A DNA stretch of 6,283 nt from Planctomycetota bacterium (GTDB taxonomy: Bacteria; Planctomycetota; Phycisphaerae; WQYP01), in assembly GCA_021852225.1 (NCBI GenBank), contig JAJZOA010000139.1, positions 1-6,283 on the forward strand, in the 5' to 3' direction. Shown piece after piece: positions 1 to 6,261 of the stretch. The notes under the pieces were generated by a model. That model did not search any database, was not told where the DNA came from, and was given only the letters and a program-made list of their open reading frames with translations. The translations under genes and the position numbers were made by a program. Within the stretch, counting starts at the first letter, position 1; every line of letters starts with the position of its first letter.

Positions 1-1
1 C

Positions 2-127
2 CAGTGGCGCCTTCTGCGCAACGAACCCGTGGGGCTGGTCGGTTCGTCGGAGTGCCTGACCATCGCTTCCAGCCTGCCGCACGGCCATGTGGCGGCGGTG
101 CTTGGTACGGTGCGGAACGGGAAGTGA
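2..127 (+). pseudogene. IS1634-type transposase remnant (N-terminal region fragment)
   Basis: The frame is open from the window edge and stops at TGA 125-127, giving 41 visible residues. It contains WRLLRNEPVGLVG followed by SLPHGHVAAVLGTVR. From memory of the family, the SLPHGHVAAVLGT block is characteristic of the N-terminal part of IS1634-type (IS4 superfamily, DDE) transposases, where it is normally followed by a leucine/glycine-rich stretch such as RxLGLxxLL and several hundred more residues. Here the match ends after GTVR, and NGK plus a stop follow, so the catalytic domain is absent. This points to a broken insertion sequence whose edge lies near base 115-127. The upstream part is outside the window. 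The family call rests on one motif, so confidence is moderate. Confidence 0.55.
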
Positions 128-243: not shown

Positions 244-1548
244 TCACTTCTGAGCCATGCCAGAGCGCAGGAGTGACGAGGCGCTGCGGAAGTTCACCTT
301 TGAACCCAGAAAATTGCTTATCCGTAGAAGTTCATTCCATTTGACCATGCGCTCACTGCGGGCGAAGGACCCTACCTTAAGAATTGGTGCGTTGGTGGCC
401 ACGGCAAGATGGGCGATAAAAGCGTCTTCCGTTTCGCCGGAGCGGGCGGAGACCACTGGTAGCCAGTCGGCATCGTGCGTGAGCTTAATGGCGTTCAAAG
501 TTTCACTGACGGTGCCGATCTGATTGAGTTTTATCAGCACGGCATTGGCGAGATTATCTTTTATTCCCTGCCGTATGCGAGCGGCGTTGGTGACGAACAA
601 ATCATCGCCAATAATCGTTACGGTTTTTCCCAATTCATGCTGAATCATGGCCCAACCCGCAAGATCAATATCGGCGGCGGGGTCTTCGAGGGCTACAATA
701 GGATAACGATGACACCAATCGGTCATCATTGCACAGAATCCGGCGGAGTCGAAGGTGCGGCTTTCCAGTTTGAACTGGTAGCATTTATTTTTTTCATCGT
801 AAAGATCACTGGCTGCAATATCCAGTGACAGCGCGGCTTCCACGCCGGGGGTGTAGCCCGCCCTTTCAATTCCCGCGAGGCATAATTCCAGCGCCTGCGC
901 ATTGGTTTTAACGTGCGGCCAGAAGCCTCCTTCATCGGCGATTCCGCAGCGCTGTTTGCGTTCGGTCAGCAGATCACCAGTGGCGTGGTATATATTATGC
1001 GTTATTTCAAGCGCTTCCTCATAGCTGCGGGCACCGATGGCCATGACCATGATGTCTTGTATGTCGATGGCGCGGTTGGCGTGCAATCCGCCGCCGATAA
1101 TTTGAATTTCCGGTAATGGGAGCGTTACGGATTGTCCGGCGGCAAGGTATTCAAAAATGGGTAGAGCACGGCACCGGGCAGCGGCATCCACGGCGGCCAG
1201 GGAAACGCCGAGAATGGCATTGGCACCGAGACGGGATTTGTTTTCGGTTCCATCCAAAGCAATCAAGGCTTTATCAAGTTCACGCTGGGCGAAGACATCA
1301 TGTCCACGCAAGTGAGGGGCGATTTCGCCGGTGACATTGGCGATGGCGTGGAAAACGGATTTTCCCCGATATTTCGCGGGATCGCCATCGCGCAATTCCA
1401 AGGCCTCAAACTGGCCGGTGGATGCTCCGGACGGAACCAGGCCGTGGCCCTGGATGCCGTTTTCAAGCGTTACCTGGACCTCCAGCGTCGGGTTGCCGCG
1501 GGAATCAAAAATCTGATACGCCATGATGTCAGTTATTTCCACCGGCAT
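244..1548 (-). CDS. Divergent enolase paralog (enolase-family lyase, substrate uncertain)
   Basis: The 434-residue protein has the usual enolase length and architecture: an N-terminal capping domain with DSRGNPT (15-21) and the mobile loop PSGAST (39-44), then a TIM-barrel domain. Enolase family members abstract an alpha proton from a carboxylate bound to Mg2+ and eliminate water. Mg2+ ligands D243, E288 and D315 are present, as are E206 in ADEGG and the general-base lysine K340 in the family signature LIKLNQIG, plus K391 in LKVGS. Key positions differ from true enolases. QEFM is QDIM, so D165 replaces Glu168 of yeast. SHRSGETED is SARSGETED, so A368 replaces His373. INGGEHADN is IGGGLHANR around H156. 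It therefore probably does not serve as the main glycolytic enolase. M1 is preferred over M9 because it covers the first beta strand (ITDIMAYQIFDSRG) and has AAAGGA upstream. The start overlaps the kinase stop by 20 bases, suggesting translational coupling. The enolase superfamily assignment is very secure; the reaction is not. Confidence 0.9.
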   Translation of the reverse strand: MPVEITDIMAYQIFDSRGNPTLEVQVTLENGIQGHGLVPSGASTGQFEALELRDGDPAKYRGKSVFHAIANVTGEIAPHLRGHDVFAQRELDKALIALDGTENKSRLGANAILGVSLAAVDAAARCRALPIFEYLAAGQSVTLPLPEIQIIGGGLHANRAIDIQDIMVMAIGARSYEEALEITHNIYHATGDLLTERKQRCGIADEGGFWPHVKTNAQALELCLAGIERAGYTPGVEAALSLDIAASDLYDEKNKCYQFKLESRTFDSAGFCAMMTDWCHRYPIVALEDPAADIDLAGWAMIQHELGKTVTIIGDDLFVTNAARIRQGIKDNLANAVLIKLNQIGTVSETLNAIKLTHDADWLPVVSARSGETEDAFIAHLAVATNAPILKVGSFARSERMVKWNELLRISNFLGSKVNFRSASSLLRSGMAQK

Positions 1549-2560
1549 GATCCTTTAAAAAATCGCTGAATACCGAGCATAAGTCTTCCGTCGTGGGCCG
1601 AGGGGATAAGATGGTGTTAAGAGCGAAACGCCGAACCAGTTCCTTGTCGCTTTCACGGTTCAGATATTCCACGGGTGATTTACCATCGATACGGGCCAGC
1701 AGCAGCAGGGGCAACAATGTTGGTACCGTTGGCGCGATGAACTTGAATTTTTCCATGCCGAGATTTTCAGCATAAGCCCGCCACGCAACCTGTGCCAAAT
1801 GCACAAACTGTTGCGCCTGCGGTTGGCGATGGATGGCTTTGAGCAGCAGATGATTCAACAGAAACGCAATATCAAACGCGGGGTCGCCGAACCAGGCGAC
1901 TTCCCAGTCCAACACCACCAGTTGGGAATCGCAAAATAACATATTTTTAGGGCTGTAATCACCATGCACGAGACTTTTGTGTGGACTATGACGCAAATGA
2001 CCAATCTGTACCGCCACGGCGTTGGCGATGGTCGGATGTTTACTTGCCAGCACCTCAAAATAGGGGGAGACGCGCAACTGTCTGAAATCTTCCCATTTTC
2101 CCAATGTTTCGGTTAACTCCGTCATGGCCCATGTTCGGCGATGCAGCACCCCCAGCGTGCCGCCCGCAATCCGGGCATGACTTTCGCCGCATTGGCCATT
2201 CAACAGCAGGTGCTTCCAATTAACAAATCGCTCGTCCATGAATTCCATGATGAAATAGCCTTGGTCGCCATGCGCGGCAAGCAGGCGGGGGGCGACATTC
2301 GAGAGCAGATGTCCCATTAAACGCAGCGCTTCGATTTCCACCCGATTGCGGGAAATATCGGCTGTCCACTCTTCCTTCACGCGCAACTTTCCCAATGCCC
2401 GCTTGGCCACCAGGCGTTTGTCGCCATCCTCCACCAGATAAATATCACTGGACACGCCGCCAGCCAAAGGCATCAAACGGGCGTTTGGATTGCTGATAAC
2501 TCCGTCCCGAAAGAGCTGCTGGCGAAATTGGTCGCGGGCCGGTATCTCATCATTTTGCAT
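1529..2560 (-). CDS. APH/methylthioribose-kinase-fold small-molecule kinase
   Basis: This 343-residue cytoplasmic kinase belongs to the aminoglycoside-phosphotransferase superfamily, which also includes choline, homoserine and 5-methylthioribose kinases. Visible landmarks are the nucleotide loop GGVSSDIYLVE (34-44), a candidate ATP lysine K53 in LVAKRAL, the catalytic loop HGDYSPKN (199-206, base D201, Mg ligand N206) and the metal-binding LDWE (217-220, D218) followed by WFGDPAFD. The GGVSSDIY loop and the DWE...GDPAFD segment recall methylthioribose kinase, but no mtn genes are nearby. In this setting a sugar or sugar-derivative kinase is more likely than antibiotic resistance. The frame stays open up to an ATG at 2684-2686, but that start would overlap the isomerase gene by 100 bases and add 42 residues with no kinase features. 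The ATG at 2558-2560, 26 bases past the isomerase stop, is preferred although its Shine-Dalgarno (TTGAG) is weak. The 3' end overlaps the enolase gene by 20 bases. The substrate is unknown. Confidence 0.85.
   Translation of the reverse strand: MQNDEIPARDQFRQQLFRDGVISNPNARLMPLAGGVSSDIYLVEDGDKRLVAKRALGKLRVKEEWTADISRNRVEIEALRLMGHLLSNVAPRLLAAHGDQGYFIMEFMDERFVNWKHLLLNGQCGESHARIAGGTLGVLHRRTWAMTELTETLGKWEDFRQLRVSPYFEVLASKHPTIANAVAVQIGHLRHSPHKSLVHGDYSPKNMLFCDSQLVVLDWEVAWFGDPAFDIAFLLNHLLLKAIHRQPQAQQFVHLAQVAWRAYAENLGMEKFKFIAPTVPTLLPLLLLARIDGKSPVEYLNRESDKELVRRFALNTILSPRPTTEDLCSVFSDFLKDHAGGNN
1551..1556 (-). promoter_or_regulatory. Ribosome binding site of the enolase paralog
   Basis: AAAGGA on the minus strand lies only two bases from the ATG at 1546-1548 and inside the 3' end of the kinase gene. 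The spacing is short for a Shine-Dalgarno site, but no better site precedes M1 and the gene overlap favours re-initiation. M9 at 1522-1524 would remove the first beta strand of the fold, so M1 is kept. Confidence 0.45.
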
Positions 2561-2586: not shown

Positions 2587-4131
2587 TTAAGCCGACCGGC
2601 TTAGTCCGGACAATTCGGCGGGATGTTCCGATGTCAACTCCGTCACACCCAGCCAGTGGTTTAGCAACTGCAGGCTGGGTTTCCAATGACCGAATCCCAA
2701 AGACCAGTGATGATCCAGACCTTTTGCGATGATCGTTCCGATCAAATCAGTTGCGGTCCATGGCGCGGTGGGTTGCATTTCGCCGTAAACGCCGCGGAAG
2801 GGCATCTGGCAATCCATCATTTCTCCTTCAAAGGTGAAGCAACGTCCGGCGGCGGGCGATTGATACCTTACGACCGTAGCGGGTCCGGTTGTCAGTAGAA
2901 ATTCCACCATCAGACCGACAGCGGTCGTGGCATCGGCGTTTTCCAGTATGGAATGTCGCCGCGCTTCAAACTTGGTGCCCGGCTTCAGGAGTCTGGTGGG
3001 GCTGGCACCGCAATGCCACAAAGCGATGCGATTGGCGATCGAATCGACCCCGGATATATCCATCATGGTGGGAACCGCGCGTCCGTCCGACAACAGGTAC
3101 ATGGCCAGTGATGAAATCAGGCCGTGCATATCCCCTTCTTCGGCGGTACATAAACCAGCGTCATTGAGCATGGACACTGCGCCATCAGCGGCGCAGCCAT
3201 ACTGGTCGAAGAGTTCGGGCCAGCTTTTAATCGTACAGCCGATGTAGTTATGTTTCACAGCCATATCCATAATGGCCAGTCCCAGCCGCAGCGTTTGAAA
3301 AATCTGCACATCAGGCACCTCGCGCCGTGCGCACCGAGGTGAGCCGACCAGAGAATCCGCCAAGCGTTTCACTATCGTATCACTAAAAGTGCGGGCGTGT
3401 TGAAATACCGCCTCCAGATCCACACGGTCAAACCGCAGGCCAAAGCGCCGCATCACGGCCAGTTCGTCGGTTTCACCGTCATAAAAAGCCGTTACACGCG
3501 TTCCGCCAACATGCAGAAGTTTTCCGTAGCGCAGTCGCTGGCGGGCGCGGACGCTGCGGCAAAACGTCCACAAGATCGGTGGCGGTCCTTCTTGAGTCTT
3601 CTGATGTGCCCAGGCATAGCGGACGCCGAACCGCGTGAGCATATTGAGAATAAAATTCTGGCAGCAGAGACTGTTCGCGGTCAGGCGCTCGCTGTGCGGA
3701 TCGGGGAATGACCAACTCAACAGGGGCAGCGGATGATCCGTAAGCCACCGGCCCAGATAGGAGCCGATTTCACCGGCGGTGTAGGCTGCATGAAACAGAA
3801 TAATTCCGGCGAGATCGGTAGCATTCTCATTGAGCCACCGCACCAGCTCATCAGGATTCTCAAACGGCTCCGAAGCGCGGATTAGTTCAAAGGATGTTGG
3901 ATCCAGGGCAGCGCGGGCAGCCACAAATGCCCGGTCATAGCTGGCGCAGGTTTTATCCCATGGAAAGTGTATTTTTACCCCGCAACCCAGAAAGGCGATG
4001 CGTGTCGGTTTCGCAGCAGCCGGAGCGGGGATAATTTCCCGGAGACTTGCCGTGGTCAAACCCAGTTGCGGCAATTCTGGGATTGTCTGTATGGGGTCTT
4101 GAGGGTTAGCGGGTTGGAGGTTCATATTCAT
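2587..4131 (-). CDS. L-fucose/L-arabinose isomerase-fold sugar isomerase
   Basis: This 514-residue protein resembles the L-fucose isomerase-related group (COG2407 type), which interconverts aldoses and ketoses with a divalent metal. After a Pro/Ala-rich tail (1-42) comes a Rossmann-like start RIAFLGCGVKIHFPWD (44-59). The C-terminal half carries the active-site pattern: IKSWPE (301-306), AEEGDMHG (330-337, E332 matching the catalytic Glu337 of E. coli FucI), MMDISGVD (356-363, D358 matching Asp361), ALWHCGASP (370-378), and GLDHHWSLGFGHW (471-483, with a His corresponding to metal ligand His528). All three expected metal ligands therefore appear present, so it is probably an active enzyme. 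It is shorter than FucI (about 590 residues), as are other FucI-related isomerases acting on other sugars. Start M1 is supported by AAAAGGA seven bases upstream; M3 is less well placed. It is the first gene of the isomerase-kinase-enolase operon. The substrate cannot be read from the sequence. Confidence 0.85.
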   Translation of the reverse strand: MNMNLQPANPQDPIQTIPELPQLGLTTASLREIIPAPAAAKPTRIAFLGCGVKIHFPWDKTCASYDRAFVAARAALDPTSFELIRASEPFENPDELVRWLNENATDLAGIILFHAAYTAGEIGSYLGRWLTDHPLPLLSWSFPDPHSERLTANSLCCQNFILNMLTRFGVRYAWAHQKTQEGPPPILWTFCRSVRARQRLRYGKLLHVGGTRVTAFYDGETDELAVMRRFGLRFDRVDLEAVFQHARTFSDTIVKRLADSLVGSPRCARREVPDVQIFQTLRLGLAIMDMAVKHNYIGCTIKSWPELFDQYGCAADGAVSMLNDAGLCTAEEGDMHGLISSLAMYLLSDGRAVPTMMDISGVDSIANRIALWHCGASPTRLLKPGTKFEARRHSILENADATTAVGLMVEFLLTTGPATVVRYQSPAAGRCFTFEGEMMDCQMPFRGVYGEMQPTAPWTATDLIGTIIAKGLDHHWSLGFGHWKPSLQLLNHWLGVTELTSEHPAELSGLSRSA

Positions 4132-4276: not shown

Positions 4277-5167
4277 TTATCCGCCGGCCTGGTTATACAT
4301 GGCGCGATATTGCCGTGGGGTAATGCCTTTTGCGAGTTTGAAGCGGCGGTTGAAGTTGGAAAGGTTGGCAAAGCCGGAGTCCAGCGCGATGGCGGTAATG
4401 GTCTGCTCCGTTTCCCCCAAAAGTCGGCAGACATGCGCAATACGCCAATCGCCAAGATACTGGACATAGGGTTTGCCCATTTGCCGCTTAAAAAAGCGGC
4501 TGAATCCCGCCGGTGACAAACCGGCGTTGTGCGCCATTTGCGCCTGCGTCGGCGCGTTGGTCGGTGCGGTACGCAGACGCTCGATTATCTCCTCCAGCAA
4601 TTGATTATTTCGCACGGCGGGCCGGATATCGGGAGTGGCAGTACCCAGCGGTCGACATTCACTGCTCATGCCACCAGCGGCCAGCAATGCCAGAATCTCA
4701 AGGAGTTTTGCAATGCGCAATGCGGAACCGGTCGGGGCTTCATACAAATCCATAAAAATATCCCGCACGCGGGATCGCGTTTTGCCACGAATGTGTAGGC
4801 CGCGCTGAGCCACTCTTAACAGCTCGGCGATGGGCCGCATTTCCGGCAATTCCGTAAATTCTTTACCCCAGAGATTGGAACTGAATTGCGCCACCAGAGA
4901 TCGCACATGGCCCTTTTGGATTTCGGAACTCCAAGTGTGCGGCGTATCGGATCCCAACAGACATAAATCTCCTTCGGCAAATGGTTCAATGGTGTCCAGC
5001 ACAAAACGCAAGCCGCGGCCACGCAGGATCAGCGTTAATTCCACTTCCGGATGGCGGTGCCAGCGGAATTCGAAATTCTTAAGCCGAAAATCACGCACGG
5101 CAAAAGAAGTCCGCGCATCCATGGGGATGGCTTCGTCCCGAATCTGCCGTCGTCGATGGATTTGCAT
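4277..5167 (-). CDS. AraC-family transcriptional regulator with N-terminal cupin domain
   Basis: The 296-residue protein has the standard AraC/XylS layout. An N-terminal cupin sensor carries RWHRHPEVELTLILRGRG (35-52) and EGDLCLLGSDTPHTW (65-79), with histidines 37, 39 and 77 in the usual pocket or metal positions. A C-terminal domain carries two helix-turn-helix units: QAQMAHNAGLSPAGFSRFFKR (208-228), and ITAIALDSGFANLSNFNRRF (257-276) followed by KLAKGITPRQYR, which matches the family signature closely. Such proteins usually bind a sugar and activate neighbouring catabolic genes. Here it sits between the isomerase operon and a divergent sugar porter, so it probably controls both and possibly itself. 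M1 has GGCGGA six bases upstream. M16 (5120-5122) is an alternative that leaves the cupin intact; the first 15 residues (QIHRRRQIRDE) are basic and unlike the domain. The family is certain; the ligand is unknown. Confidence 0.93.
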   Translation of the reverse strand: MQIHRRRQIRDEAIPMDARTSFAVRDFRLKNFEFRWHRHPEVELTLILRGRGLRFVLDTIEPFAEGDLCLLGSDTPHTWSSEIQKGHVRSLVAQFSSNLWGKEFTELPEMRPIAELLRVAQRGLHIRGKTRSRVRDIFMDLYEAPTGSALRIAKLLEILALLAAGGMSSECRPLGTATPDIRPAVRNNQLLEEIIERLRTAPTNAPTQAQMAHNAGLSPAGFSRFFKRQMGKPYVQYLGDWRIAHVCRLLGETEQTITAIALDSGFANLSNFNRRFKLAKGITPRQYRAMYNQAGG

Positions 5168-5358: not shown

Positions 5359-6261
5359 ATGTCCACTACTTCGGAAAACACTGTCGGGGTGCCCTTGGCG
5401 GAACCGTCACCTGGCATCGGTCCGACTGTTTTTGCCGTAGCTGCGGCGGCCTTGGCGGGTTTGCTGTTCGGCTATGACACGGGCGTAGCCTCGGGTGTTC
5501 AAAGCTATCTGCAGACCTACTTTCACCTAACCAATACGGAACTAGGCTTCGCCATTGCCAGTTTGGAACTCGGTTGCATTCCCGGTGCCATGTTCGCGGG
5601 CCCCCTGTCTGATCGCTTTGGCCGCAAGAAGTTGCTGATTATTTGCGCCGTAATTTTTGCCGTATCGGGGGTTCTTTCCGCCATTCCACGCTCCCTGACC
5701 GAACTGGTTCTGGCCCGGATAATCGGAGGTCTGGCAGTCGGGGCTTCTTCCATGGTCGCCCCGGTGTATATTGCGGAAATATCGCCGGAAAGGCACCGTG
5801 GCCGGTTGGGGTCGTTGTTCCAACTGGGCATTGTCGTCGGTATCGCGTTGGTCTATTGGGTCAACTATATTATTCTCCGCGCCGGGCACCATATCAATAC
5901 CGGTCCGCATGTGCAGGCAATGAATTGGAATCAGGCGATGGGCTGGCGCTGGATGCTGGGTTCGGAGATATTTCCCGCCATGGTGTTTCTGCTGATGATT
6001 CTGACGGTACCGGAAAGCCCGCGCTGGCTGGTGATCAACAACCGCGAAGCGCAGGGGCGGAAAATTTTATATCGTCTTGTGGGCTCCGCCCGAGCGGAAC
6101 GAGAAATTAAGGCAATCAAAGAAGCTGCCGCTCAGGAGGTGGGTGGTTTTTCGGAACTTTTTACCCCCCGCTACCGATTGCCGCTAAGGGCCAGTGCAAA
6201 AACAACTTCGTGTTTTCATGGGCCGCTGGCAGTGGGTGTGGATCGTGGCCGGATGATGTAG
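5359..6261 (+). CDS. MFS sugar porter (sugar:H+ symporter type), truncated to its N-terminal half
   Basis: The frame encodes 300 residues, whereas sugar porters of the MFS (XylE/GLUT type) have about 450-500 residues and 12 membrane segments. The visible part is typical: TM1 ending in LLFGYDTGVASG (35-46), the loop 2-3 motif GPLSDRFGRKK (81-91), ARIIGGLAVGASSMVAPVYIAE around TM4 (119-140), ISPERHRGRLGS (141-152), GWRWMLG at TM6 (195-201), and VPESPRWL (217-224) leading into the cytoplasmic loop. Homology runs to SELFTPRYRLP (265-275), just before TM7. Residues 277-300 (RASAKTTSCF and on) are not membrane-like and not family-like. The substitute tail starts at about base 6184-6187. The protein thus lacks TM7-12 and is almost certainly non-functional for transport, unless the last 100 bases are an assembly artefact. 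No other frame after 6184 restores family sequence. It probably imported the sugar handled by the adjacent isomerase and kinase. Confidence 0.85.
   Translation: MSTTSENTVGVPLAEPSPGIGPTVFAVAAAALAGLLFGYDTGVASGVQSYLQTYFHLTNTELGFAIASLELGCIPGAMFAGPLSDRFGRKKLLIICAVIFAVSGVLSAIPRSLTELVLARIIGGLAVGASSMVAPVYIAEISPERHRGRLGSLFQLGIVVGIALVYWVNYIILRAGHHINTGPHVQAMNWNQAMGWRWMLGSEIFPAMVFLLMILTVPESPRWLVINNREAQGRKILYRLVGSARAEREIKAIKEAAAQEVGGFSELFTPRYRLPLRASAKTTSCFHGPLAVGVDRGRMM

What the first reader, a model, noticed from the sequence alone, without database searches (positions are those of the whole stretch)
244..1548. Enolase paralog with a remodelled active site
Aligned by eye with bacterial and yeast enolases, all Mg2+ ligands (D243, E288, D315), E206 and the lysines K340 and K391 are kept. 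The catalytic Glu168 equivalent is Asp165, the His373 equivalent is Ala368 and the INGGEHADN loop reads IGGGLHANR. In yeast enolase, Glu168 and His373 contribute to catalysis and substrate binding, and such changes lower activity. Keeping the enolisation machinery while changing the phosphate/leaving-group side is what one expects of an enolase recruited to a different substrate, as in carboxyphosphoenolpyruvate synthase of phosphinothricin biosynthesis. I infer a different phosphorylated acid substrate.
Basis: partly seen in the sequence, partly recalled or inferred. Interest (0 to 1): 0.72.

Follow-up and report, generated by a model that had tools for sequence, protein, structure and literature searches.

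The report
Kinase-paired enolase with altered active site
Next to a sugar isomerase and a kinase gene lies an enolase-like enzyme of a separate, widespread family that seems to make the central metabolite PEP (or a close analogue) from an unusual phosphorylated acid, although databases label it ordinary glycolytic enolase.

Summary
The ORF at 244-1548 (minus strand, 434 aa) is an enolase that keeps its Mg ligands, both lysines, E206 and R369/S370, but has D165 and A368 where ordinary enolases have Glu and His. This is a family trait: Q149, G152, D165, A204, W210, A368 and W404 are in 125 of 125 rows of the nearest set, the ordinary residue in 77-78 of 78 other enolases. In a 36+36-row tree one branch (100/99) separates the two kinds. 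All 8 genomes tested that carry a specialised copy also carry an ordinary enolase; the window's own genome is not held. New: an APH-type kinase lies near the specialised enolase in 22 of 23 loci, near the ordinary one in 0 of 83. One locus adds isomerase, PfkB-type kinase, aldolase and ALDH. I read the pair as kinase then lyase: a 2-hydroxyacid is 2-phosphorylated, then the enolase-like enzyme eliminates to PEP or an analogue. The acid is probably not D-glycerate; which one is open (L-glycerate or a 3-substituted lactate favoured). No activity is shown.

The parts
244..1548 (-). specialised enolase paralog, 434 aa
1054..1056 (-). codon of Asp165 (Glu in 78/78 other enolases)
445..447 (-). codon of Ala368 (His in 78/78 other enolases)
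1529..2560 (-). APH-type small-molecule kinase, 343 aa from the internal ATG; its end overlaps the enolase start by 20 bases
   Evidence: PF01636 59.5 bits; length as in homologue P0121; relative near 22 of 23 specialised enolases, 0 of 83 ordinary ones
2587..4131 (-). sugar isomerase, L-fucose-isomerase-like; the only NCBIfam match is the sulfoquinovose isomerase SftI model, below its cut-off
   Evidence: NF048012 113.5 bits, cut-off 700; homologues named L-fucose isomerase-like; with a PfkB-type kinase in 5 other loci
4277..5167 (-). AraC-type regulator
   Evidence: PF12833; near full-length relatives (28-35% identity) in 5 of 5 other isomerase loci
5359..6261 (+). MFS sugar porter, N-terminal part only (300 aa), divergent
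   Evidence: PF00083 201 bits, profile 3-248 of 452

Best explanation
It is a dedicated catabolic lyase of the enolase fold that works as the second half of a kinase-lyase pair. The APH-type kinase puts phosphate on the 2-hydroxyl of a short 2-hydroxyacid; the enolase-like protein then holds the carboxylate with two Mg ions and the phosphate with R369/S370, takes a proton (K340, or on the other face E206/D165 if the substrate is the L enantiomer) and expels the group on C3, giving PEP or a PEP analogue. In the window the acid would come from a sugar: isomerase, a ketose kinase and aldolase (outside the window), aldehyde dehydrogenase, then the pair. The acid is most likely not D-glycerate, because ordinary enolase already handles its 2-phosphate. 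The trimmed leaving-group side (His to Ala, Glu to Asp, Asn to Gly) fits L-glycerate or a 3-substituted lactate. Shown: family split, kinase pairing, second enolase in relatives, pathway genes in relatives. Inferred: order of steps, phosphorylated position, product; residue roles come from recalled work on ordinary enolase. Unknown: the exact acid.
For: Active-site differences, 125/125 against 78/78. One branch 100/99 separates the kinds. D165, A368, A204 with G or S at 152 also hold in kinase-linked copies from Rhizobium, Rhodococcus, Sphingobium, Methylobacterium, Paracoccus, Roseibium and haloarchaea (L132-L135; the Enterobacter copy L112 is an outlier). Kinase in 22 of 23 specialised loci and 0 of 83 ordinary ones, also with the window kinase as the only query; among the 14 loci listed by enolase searches, 13, the exception being a contig end (two of the 14, L103 and L104, were chosen for reading after a kinase search had listed them). 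Ordinary enolase in 8 of 8 genomes that hold a specialised copy. Isomerase, PfkB-type kinase, class II aldolase, ALDH, kinase and enolase in one Persicobacter locus; lyxose-isomerase-like protein, PfkB-type hit, ALDH, kinase and enolase in an Acidobacteriota-sample locus. ALDH next to the kinase also in L093, L094. PEP carboxylase in the same gene run as the kinase in Rhizobium L103, L104. AlphaFold model with enolase fold, TM 0.91 to 4z17.
Against: No activity data. The window shows no PfkB, aldolase or ALDH. PEP carboxylase was found in 2 of 3 Rhizobium loci (not in L109), as a partial hit at the edge of L133, and in 1 of 78 ordinary loci. Several kinase-linked clusters (FAH, CtBP, HpaD-like VOC) look unlike the sugar chain, and the distant kinase-linked copies lack part of the window-type signature, so the family may have several substrates. 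CtBP-type dehydrogenases usually make D acids (recalled), which sits badly with L-glycerate. The tree is unrooted and the place of L112 in it is unsure. In L112 the enolase-like protein is very diverged, has lost E206 and has Gly at 368, and lies in a biosynthetic-looking cluster.
Confidence: 0.6

Rival explanations
1. L-glycerate funnel: L-hexoses (for example L-galactose) give L-glyceraldehyde, L-glycerate, 2-phospho-L-glycerate, and the enolase-like enzyme makes achiral PEP, with base and acid roles swapped between the two faces.
For: The chain isomerase, PfkB-type kinase, aldolase, ALDH mirrors the L-fucose pathway (recalled); isomerase loci without the enolase hold GH2-type glycosidases (L122, L123, L125); a GntP-like and a galactonate-transporter-like permease, both under their cut-offs, lie beside the enolase in L097 and L002; LUD and MR/MLE genes in haloarchaea.
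Against: CtBP and a GlcD-type FAD enzyme point to D acids in some clusters (recalled); K340 is kept as in ordinary enolase.
Confidence: 0.3
2. D-configured 2-phospho-3-X-lactate with a leaving group larger than OH (alkoxy, sulfonate, amine or heterocycle); the pocket vacated by the His takes X, and PEP plus XH are released. The sulfite version would join sulfoquinovose breakdown to PEP.
For: The walls around the leaving group are what changed, while base, Mg and phosphate ligands stay (roles recalled); the one NCBIfam match of the isomerase is SftI; CtBP partner in 9 of 26 loci.
Against: E206 and D165 remain acidic, poor for a sulfonate; no Arg of the 158-160 loop is invariant (Persicobacter has none); no gene named for sulfite handling is in the annotated stretches, but their gene table is incomplete and no systematic search was made; Roseibium L111 has a sulfatase-like gene, which leaves sulfated substrates open.
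Confidence: 0.25
3. A larger 2,3-dihydroxyacid (C4 or more) is the substrate and the product is a 2-keto-3-deoxyacid enol phosphate, later cleaved by an HpcH/HpaI-type aldolase.
For: HpaI/GarL-like aldolase two genes from the kinase in L001, and an aldolase/citrate lyase family gene beside the kinase in L115 and L135; His to Ala makes room on C3.
Against: Present in 3 of 26 loci of the tally, two of them from sister strains; PEP carboxylase in Rhizobium points to PEP itself.
Confidence: 0.2
4. It is an ordinary phosphopyruvate hydratase with tolerated substitutions, serving the lower non-phosphorylative branch glyceraldehyde, D-glycerate, 2PG, PEP.
For: Scores 528 bits against the TIGR01060 cut-off of 300; ALDH, kinase, enolase is also the order of that branch; CtBP could make D-glycerate (recalled).
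Against: 26 columns differ at the 95% level, several at the catalytic face; a normal enolase is already present in 8 of 8 genomes.
Confidence: 0.12

Closest known systems
Phosphopyruvate hydratase (enolase, EC 4.2.1.11; TIGR01060)
   Same: two-domain fold, Mg ligands, K340, K391, E206, H156, Q164, R369, S370
   Different: Asp for Glu at 165, Ala for His at 368, Gln/Gly for two loop Asn, Trp210; split off in the tree; kinase partner
Carboxyphosphoenolpyruvate synthase of phosphinothricin biosynthesis (recalled, not tested)
   Same: an enolase-fold paralog recruited to another phosphorylated substrate
   Different: the copies here lie mostly in catabolic-looking gene runs with an APH-type kinase; I noticed no phosphonate genes in the stretches read, without a dedicated search
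L-fucose / sulfo-EMP type sugar breakdown (recalled pathways)
   Same: isomerase, ketose kinase, aldolase, aldehyde dehydrogenase (Persicobacter locus)
   Different: ends in an extra kinase plus enolase-like lyase; isomerase only distantly like SftI
Methylthioribose kinase / APH family
   Same: PF01636 domain; best PDB match 2olc, E 8.6e-08
   Different: 51.5 bits against the MTRK cut-off of 275; partner is an enolase

Membership tests
phosphopyruvate hydratase | Enolase_N and Enolase_C domains, TIGR01060 score above cut-off | tested here: met
   (528 against 300)
phosphopyruvate hydratase | Mg ligands, catalytic Lys pair, E206, phosphate-binding Arg/Ser (roles recalled) | tested here: met
phosphopyruvate hydratase | Glu168 and His373 (yeast numbers, recalled) present | tested here: not met
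   D165, A368; 0 of 125 rows of the nearest set have Glu/His, 78 of 78 others do
phosphopyruvate hydratase | groups with housekeeping enolases in a tree | tested here: not met
   split 100/99, unrooted, 36+36 rows
phosphopyruvate hydratase | dehydrates D-2-phosphoglycerate | not testable with these tools
   needs assay
MR/MLE acid-sugar dehydratases | PF13378 above cut-off | tested here: not met
   22.2 bits against 29.4
carboxyphosphoenolpyruvate synthase | sequence grouping with known CPEP synthases | not tested
   no such sequence at hand
sulfoquinovose isomerase SftI (neighbour gene) | NF048012 score above cut-off | tested here: not met
   113.5 bits against 700
methylthioribose kinase (neighbour gene) | TIGR01767 score above cut-off | tested here: not met
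   51.5 bits against 275

The most novel reading that the evidence does not exclude
A family of enolases that eliminates something other than the hydroxide of D-2-phosphoglycerate: after a 2-hydroxyacid kinase, 2-phospho-3-X-lactates lose X (sulfite, methanol, a heterocycle) to give PEP, a general phosphorylation-driven way to strip C3 substituents and enter central metabolism.
Probability: 0.2. Interest if true: 0.85.

Novelty: new variant of a known kind. Interest (0 to 1): 0.62.

Why it matters
Enolase is treated as a highly conserved, single-function enzyme, and public annotation names these proteins 'phosphopyruvate hydratase'. If they act on another substrate, glycolysis reconstructions and enolase phylogenies that include them are wrong, and a carbohydrate or hydroxyacid route in Planctomycetota-like bacteria, Verrucomicrobiota, Acidobacteriota, rhizobia, Rhodococcus and haloarchaea has been overlooked. 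The kinase pairing makes the substrate question testable with two purified proteins.

Tried and rejected
Sulfolactate as the favoured substrate was my first idea, from the SftI-like isomerase; lowered because acidic E206/D165 remain, no cationic loop residue is invariant, and no gene named for sulfite handling stood among the annotated neighbours (not searched for systematically). A mimosine-type (heterocycle-alanine) route for the Rhizobium clusters was considered; the paper search listed 4 papers, none with the word enolase. An agar or L-galactose link of the isomerase was considered from GH2 neighbours and names of homologues; it stays a guess. Contig-length coincidences between homologue lists (enolase-kinase 9 shared lengths against a mean of 0.87 after shifting; enolase-isomerase 5 against 0.68) support linkage but are indirect. 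Literature: ten searches. Searches listed nothing; some searches listed 1, 4, 1 and 15 (of 112) papers. Only asked for enolase with aminoglycoside phosphotransferase, together with two further terms, all four required. I saw listings and abstract starts only, except four passages of PMC13302981, none on CPEP synthase itself.

Full report
What is there. The ORF at 244-1548 on the minus strand encodes a 434-aa enolase. It is the last gene of a run on that strand: AraC regulator (4277-5167), sugar isomerase (2587-4131), APH-type kinase (1529-2560, starting at the internal ATG, the length of its nearest homologue P0121), enolase (starting 20 bases inside the kinase gene). A divergent MFS sugar porter starts at 5359 and is seen only in part. 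No genome is held for the window; the nearest named homologues are Phycisphaerae MAG proteins.

The active site. An AlphaFold model (mean pLDDT 85.1) has the enolase fold (TM 0.91 to enolase 4z17). In an alignment of 203 rows, the 125 nearest (window, best 120 of 8000 scored homologues, L001, L002 and their duplicates L081, L082) and 78 other enolases (80 other loci, L033 and L046 dropped by a length/stop filter) differ cleanly. Nearest set / others: 149 Q/N, 152 G/N, 165 D/E, 204 A/G, 368 A/H, 404 W/Y are 125/125 against 78/78; 210 W against A is 125/125 and 77/78; 392 V against T is 125/125 and 77/78. In all, 26 columns differ at the 95% level. Conserved in both: S43, H156, Q164, E206, D243, E288, D315, K340, R369, S370; K391 is 124/125 and 78/78. 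In the model D165 opens a strand, A368 follows one and V392 lies in one; that these strand ends form the catalytic face, and that 165 and 368 match yeast Glu168 and His373, is recalled. More distant kinase-linked copies (Rhodococcus, Methylobacterium, Sphingobium, haloarchaea) keep D165, A204 and A368 with Ser at 152, but have Asn149, Ser or Ala at 210, Asp380 and Tyr404, as ordinary enolases do at 149, 380 and 404.

Paralog, not housekeeping. A maximum-likelihood tree of 36 specialised and 36 ordinary rows (one ordinary sequence, L083, entered twice) separates the two by one branch, support 100/99, one change; the tree is unrooted and the long row L112 is of unsure place. Eight genomes with a specialised copy were searched; all 8 also hold an enolase with the ordinary residues. 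The specialised kind is rare and patchy: 2 of 288 genomes drawn from the phylum of G001 (Verrucomicrobiaceae MAG), 2 of 396 and 2 of 392 from the phyla of G291 and G292 (records titled Acidobacteria and Blastopirellula), 3 of 150 from the family of G614, two of these three already counted; E cut-offs 1e-128 to 1e-130. These cut-offs would miss the haloarchaeal and Rhodococcus types.

The kinase partner. Seven kinase queries, all from specialised loci, were run against the loci held then: a match lies near the enolase in 22 of 23 specialised loci, none in 83 ordinary loci. With the window kinase as the only query the counts are the same. Ordinary loci average 17 kb; 8 of 83 are under 8 kb. Nine of the 23 (L105, L110-L117) came in through the kinase or a relative found that way. 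Of the 14 listed by enolase searches 13 have the kinase; L098, the exception, has the enolase at a contig end; L103 and L104 were picked for reading after a kinase search had listed their records, and without them it is 11 of 12. In 15 of the 22 the two matches are on one strand and under 100 bases apart; in L001, L097 and L116 on one strand and 0.3-1.5 kb apart; in three Rhizobium loci about 4.5 kb apart and in L112 0.5 kb apart, on opposite strands. L132-L135, read later, also hold both.

The pathway. The richest locus is on a Persicobacter plasmid (L102): class II aldolase, isomerase, PfkB-type kinase, AraC, ALDH, APH-type kinase, enolase, then GH3- and GH2-like genes. A locus of the Acidobacteriota sample (L100) holds a lyxose-isomerase-family protein, a PfkB-type hit (31% to the Persicobacter one), an unassigned protein 57% like one beside the isomerase in L123 (my guess: an aldolase; no Pfam or NCBIfam match for the L123 copy), ALDH, kinase, enolase. 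L093 and L094 have ALDH, kinase, enolase in a row. Four stretches without any enolase match (L122-L125) show the isomerase with a PfkB-type gene, L122 and L125 also an aldolase-like match. This reads as aldose, ketose, ketose phosphate, triose phosphate plus aldehyde, acid, 2-phospho acid, PEP. In Pseudomonadota and Rhodococcus the partners differ. Anywhere in the fetched stretch, FAH is in 11 of 26 specialised loci, CtBP in 9 plus one weak hit (L002), HpaD-like VOC in 7; each is in 0 of 78 ordinary loci (the queries came from these loci, and many loci are from close relatives, so they are not independent). ALDH was in 2, PEP carboxylase in 1 and SDR in 1 of the 78 ordinary loci. PEP carboxylase stands two genes from the kinase in L103 and L104, not in L109. 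It is the only direct hint that PEP is the product.

What the substrate is. The retained parts bind a 2-phosphocarboxylate and start enolisation; the changed parts face the leaving group (roles recalled). That excludes little, but makes D-2-phosphoglycerate an odd choice when an ordinary enolase is present. L-glycerate explains the sugar chain and the achiral product. A bulky leaving group explains the emptied pocket. Sulfite is attractive because the isomerase's one NCBIfam match is sulfoquinovose isomerase (113.5 bits, cut-off 700; 159.3 bits for the Persicobacter protein), yet the two acidic residues and the lack of sulfite genes among annotated neighbours speak against it. I could not decide between these.

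Names. Public annotation calls the copies 'phosphopyruvate hydratase', and the window protein passes the TIGR01060 cut-off. The ten paper searches listed no paper that I recognised as describing an enolase-APH kinase pair, but only asked for one; subscription journals are mostly outside that library.

Noticed in passing
window 1-127: A short plus-strand ORF end (SLPHGHVAAVLGT...) looks like the C-terminal end of a transposase (recalled resemblance, not searched).
   Followed up: no
window 5359-6261: The MFS sugar porter ORF stops at 300 aa, with the matching profile ending at position 248 of 452; frame shift, truncation or assembly error; I saw no continuation in the other two frames to the window end.
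   Followed up: partly
L112 (Enterobacter plasmid) 7280-8488: A very diverged enolase-like 'hypothetical protein' (31% identity) divergent from an APH-type kinase, in a cluster with U32 peptidase, aminotransferase, M14 peptidase and MFS genes; looks biosynthetic.
   Followed up: no
L115, L117, L135 (haloarchaeal plasmids): Kinase-enolase-cupin beside a ketol-acid reductoisomerase homologue and several MR/MLE genes: an unexplained sugar-acid cluster.
   Followed up: partly
L123 5940-6995, L124 12660-13715, L100 12256-12999: A protein family with no Pfam or NCBIfam match (L123 copy tested), recurrent beside the isomerase or enolase; my guess is a new aldolase.
   Followed up: no
L107 (Azospirillum brasilense plasmid) 10001-11287: Specialised enolase with a stop in the matched frame, next to a kinase, with TRAP-transporter-like and PhyH-like genes nearby (names recalled); possibly a pseudogene or sequencing error.
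   Followed up: no
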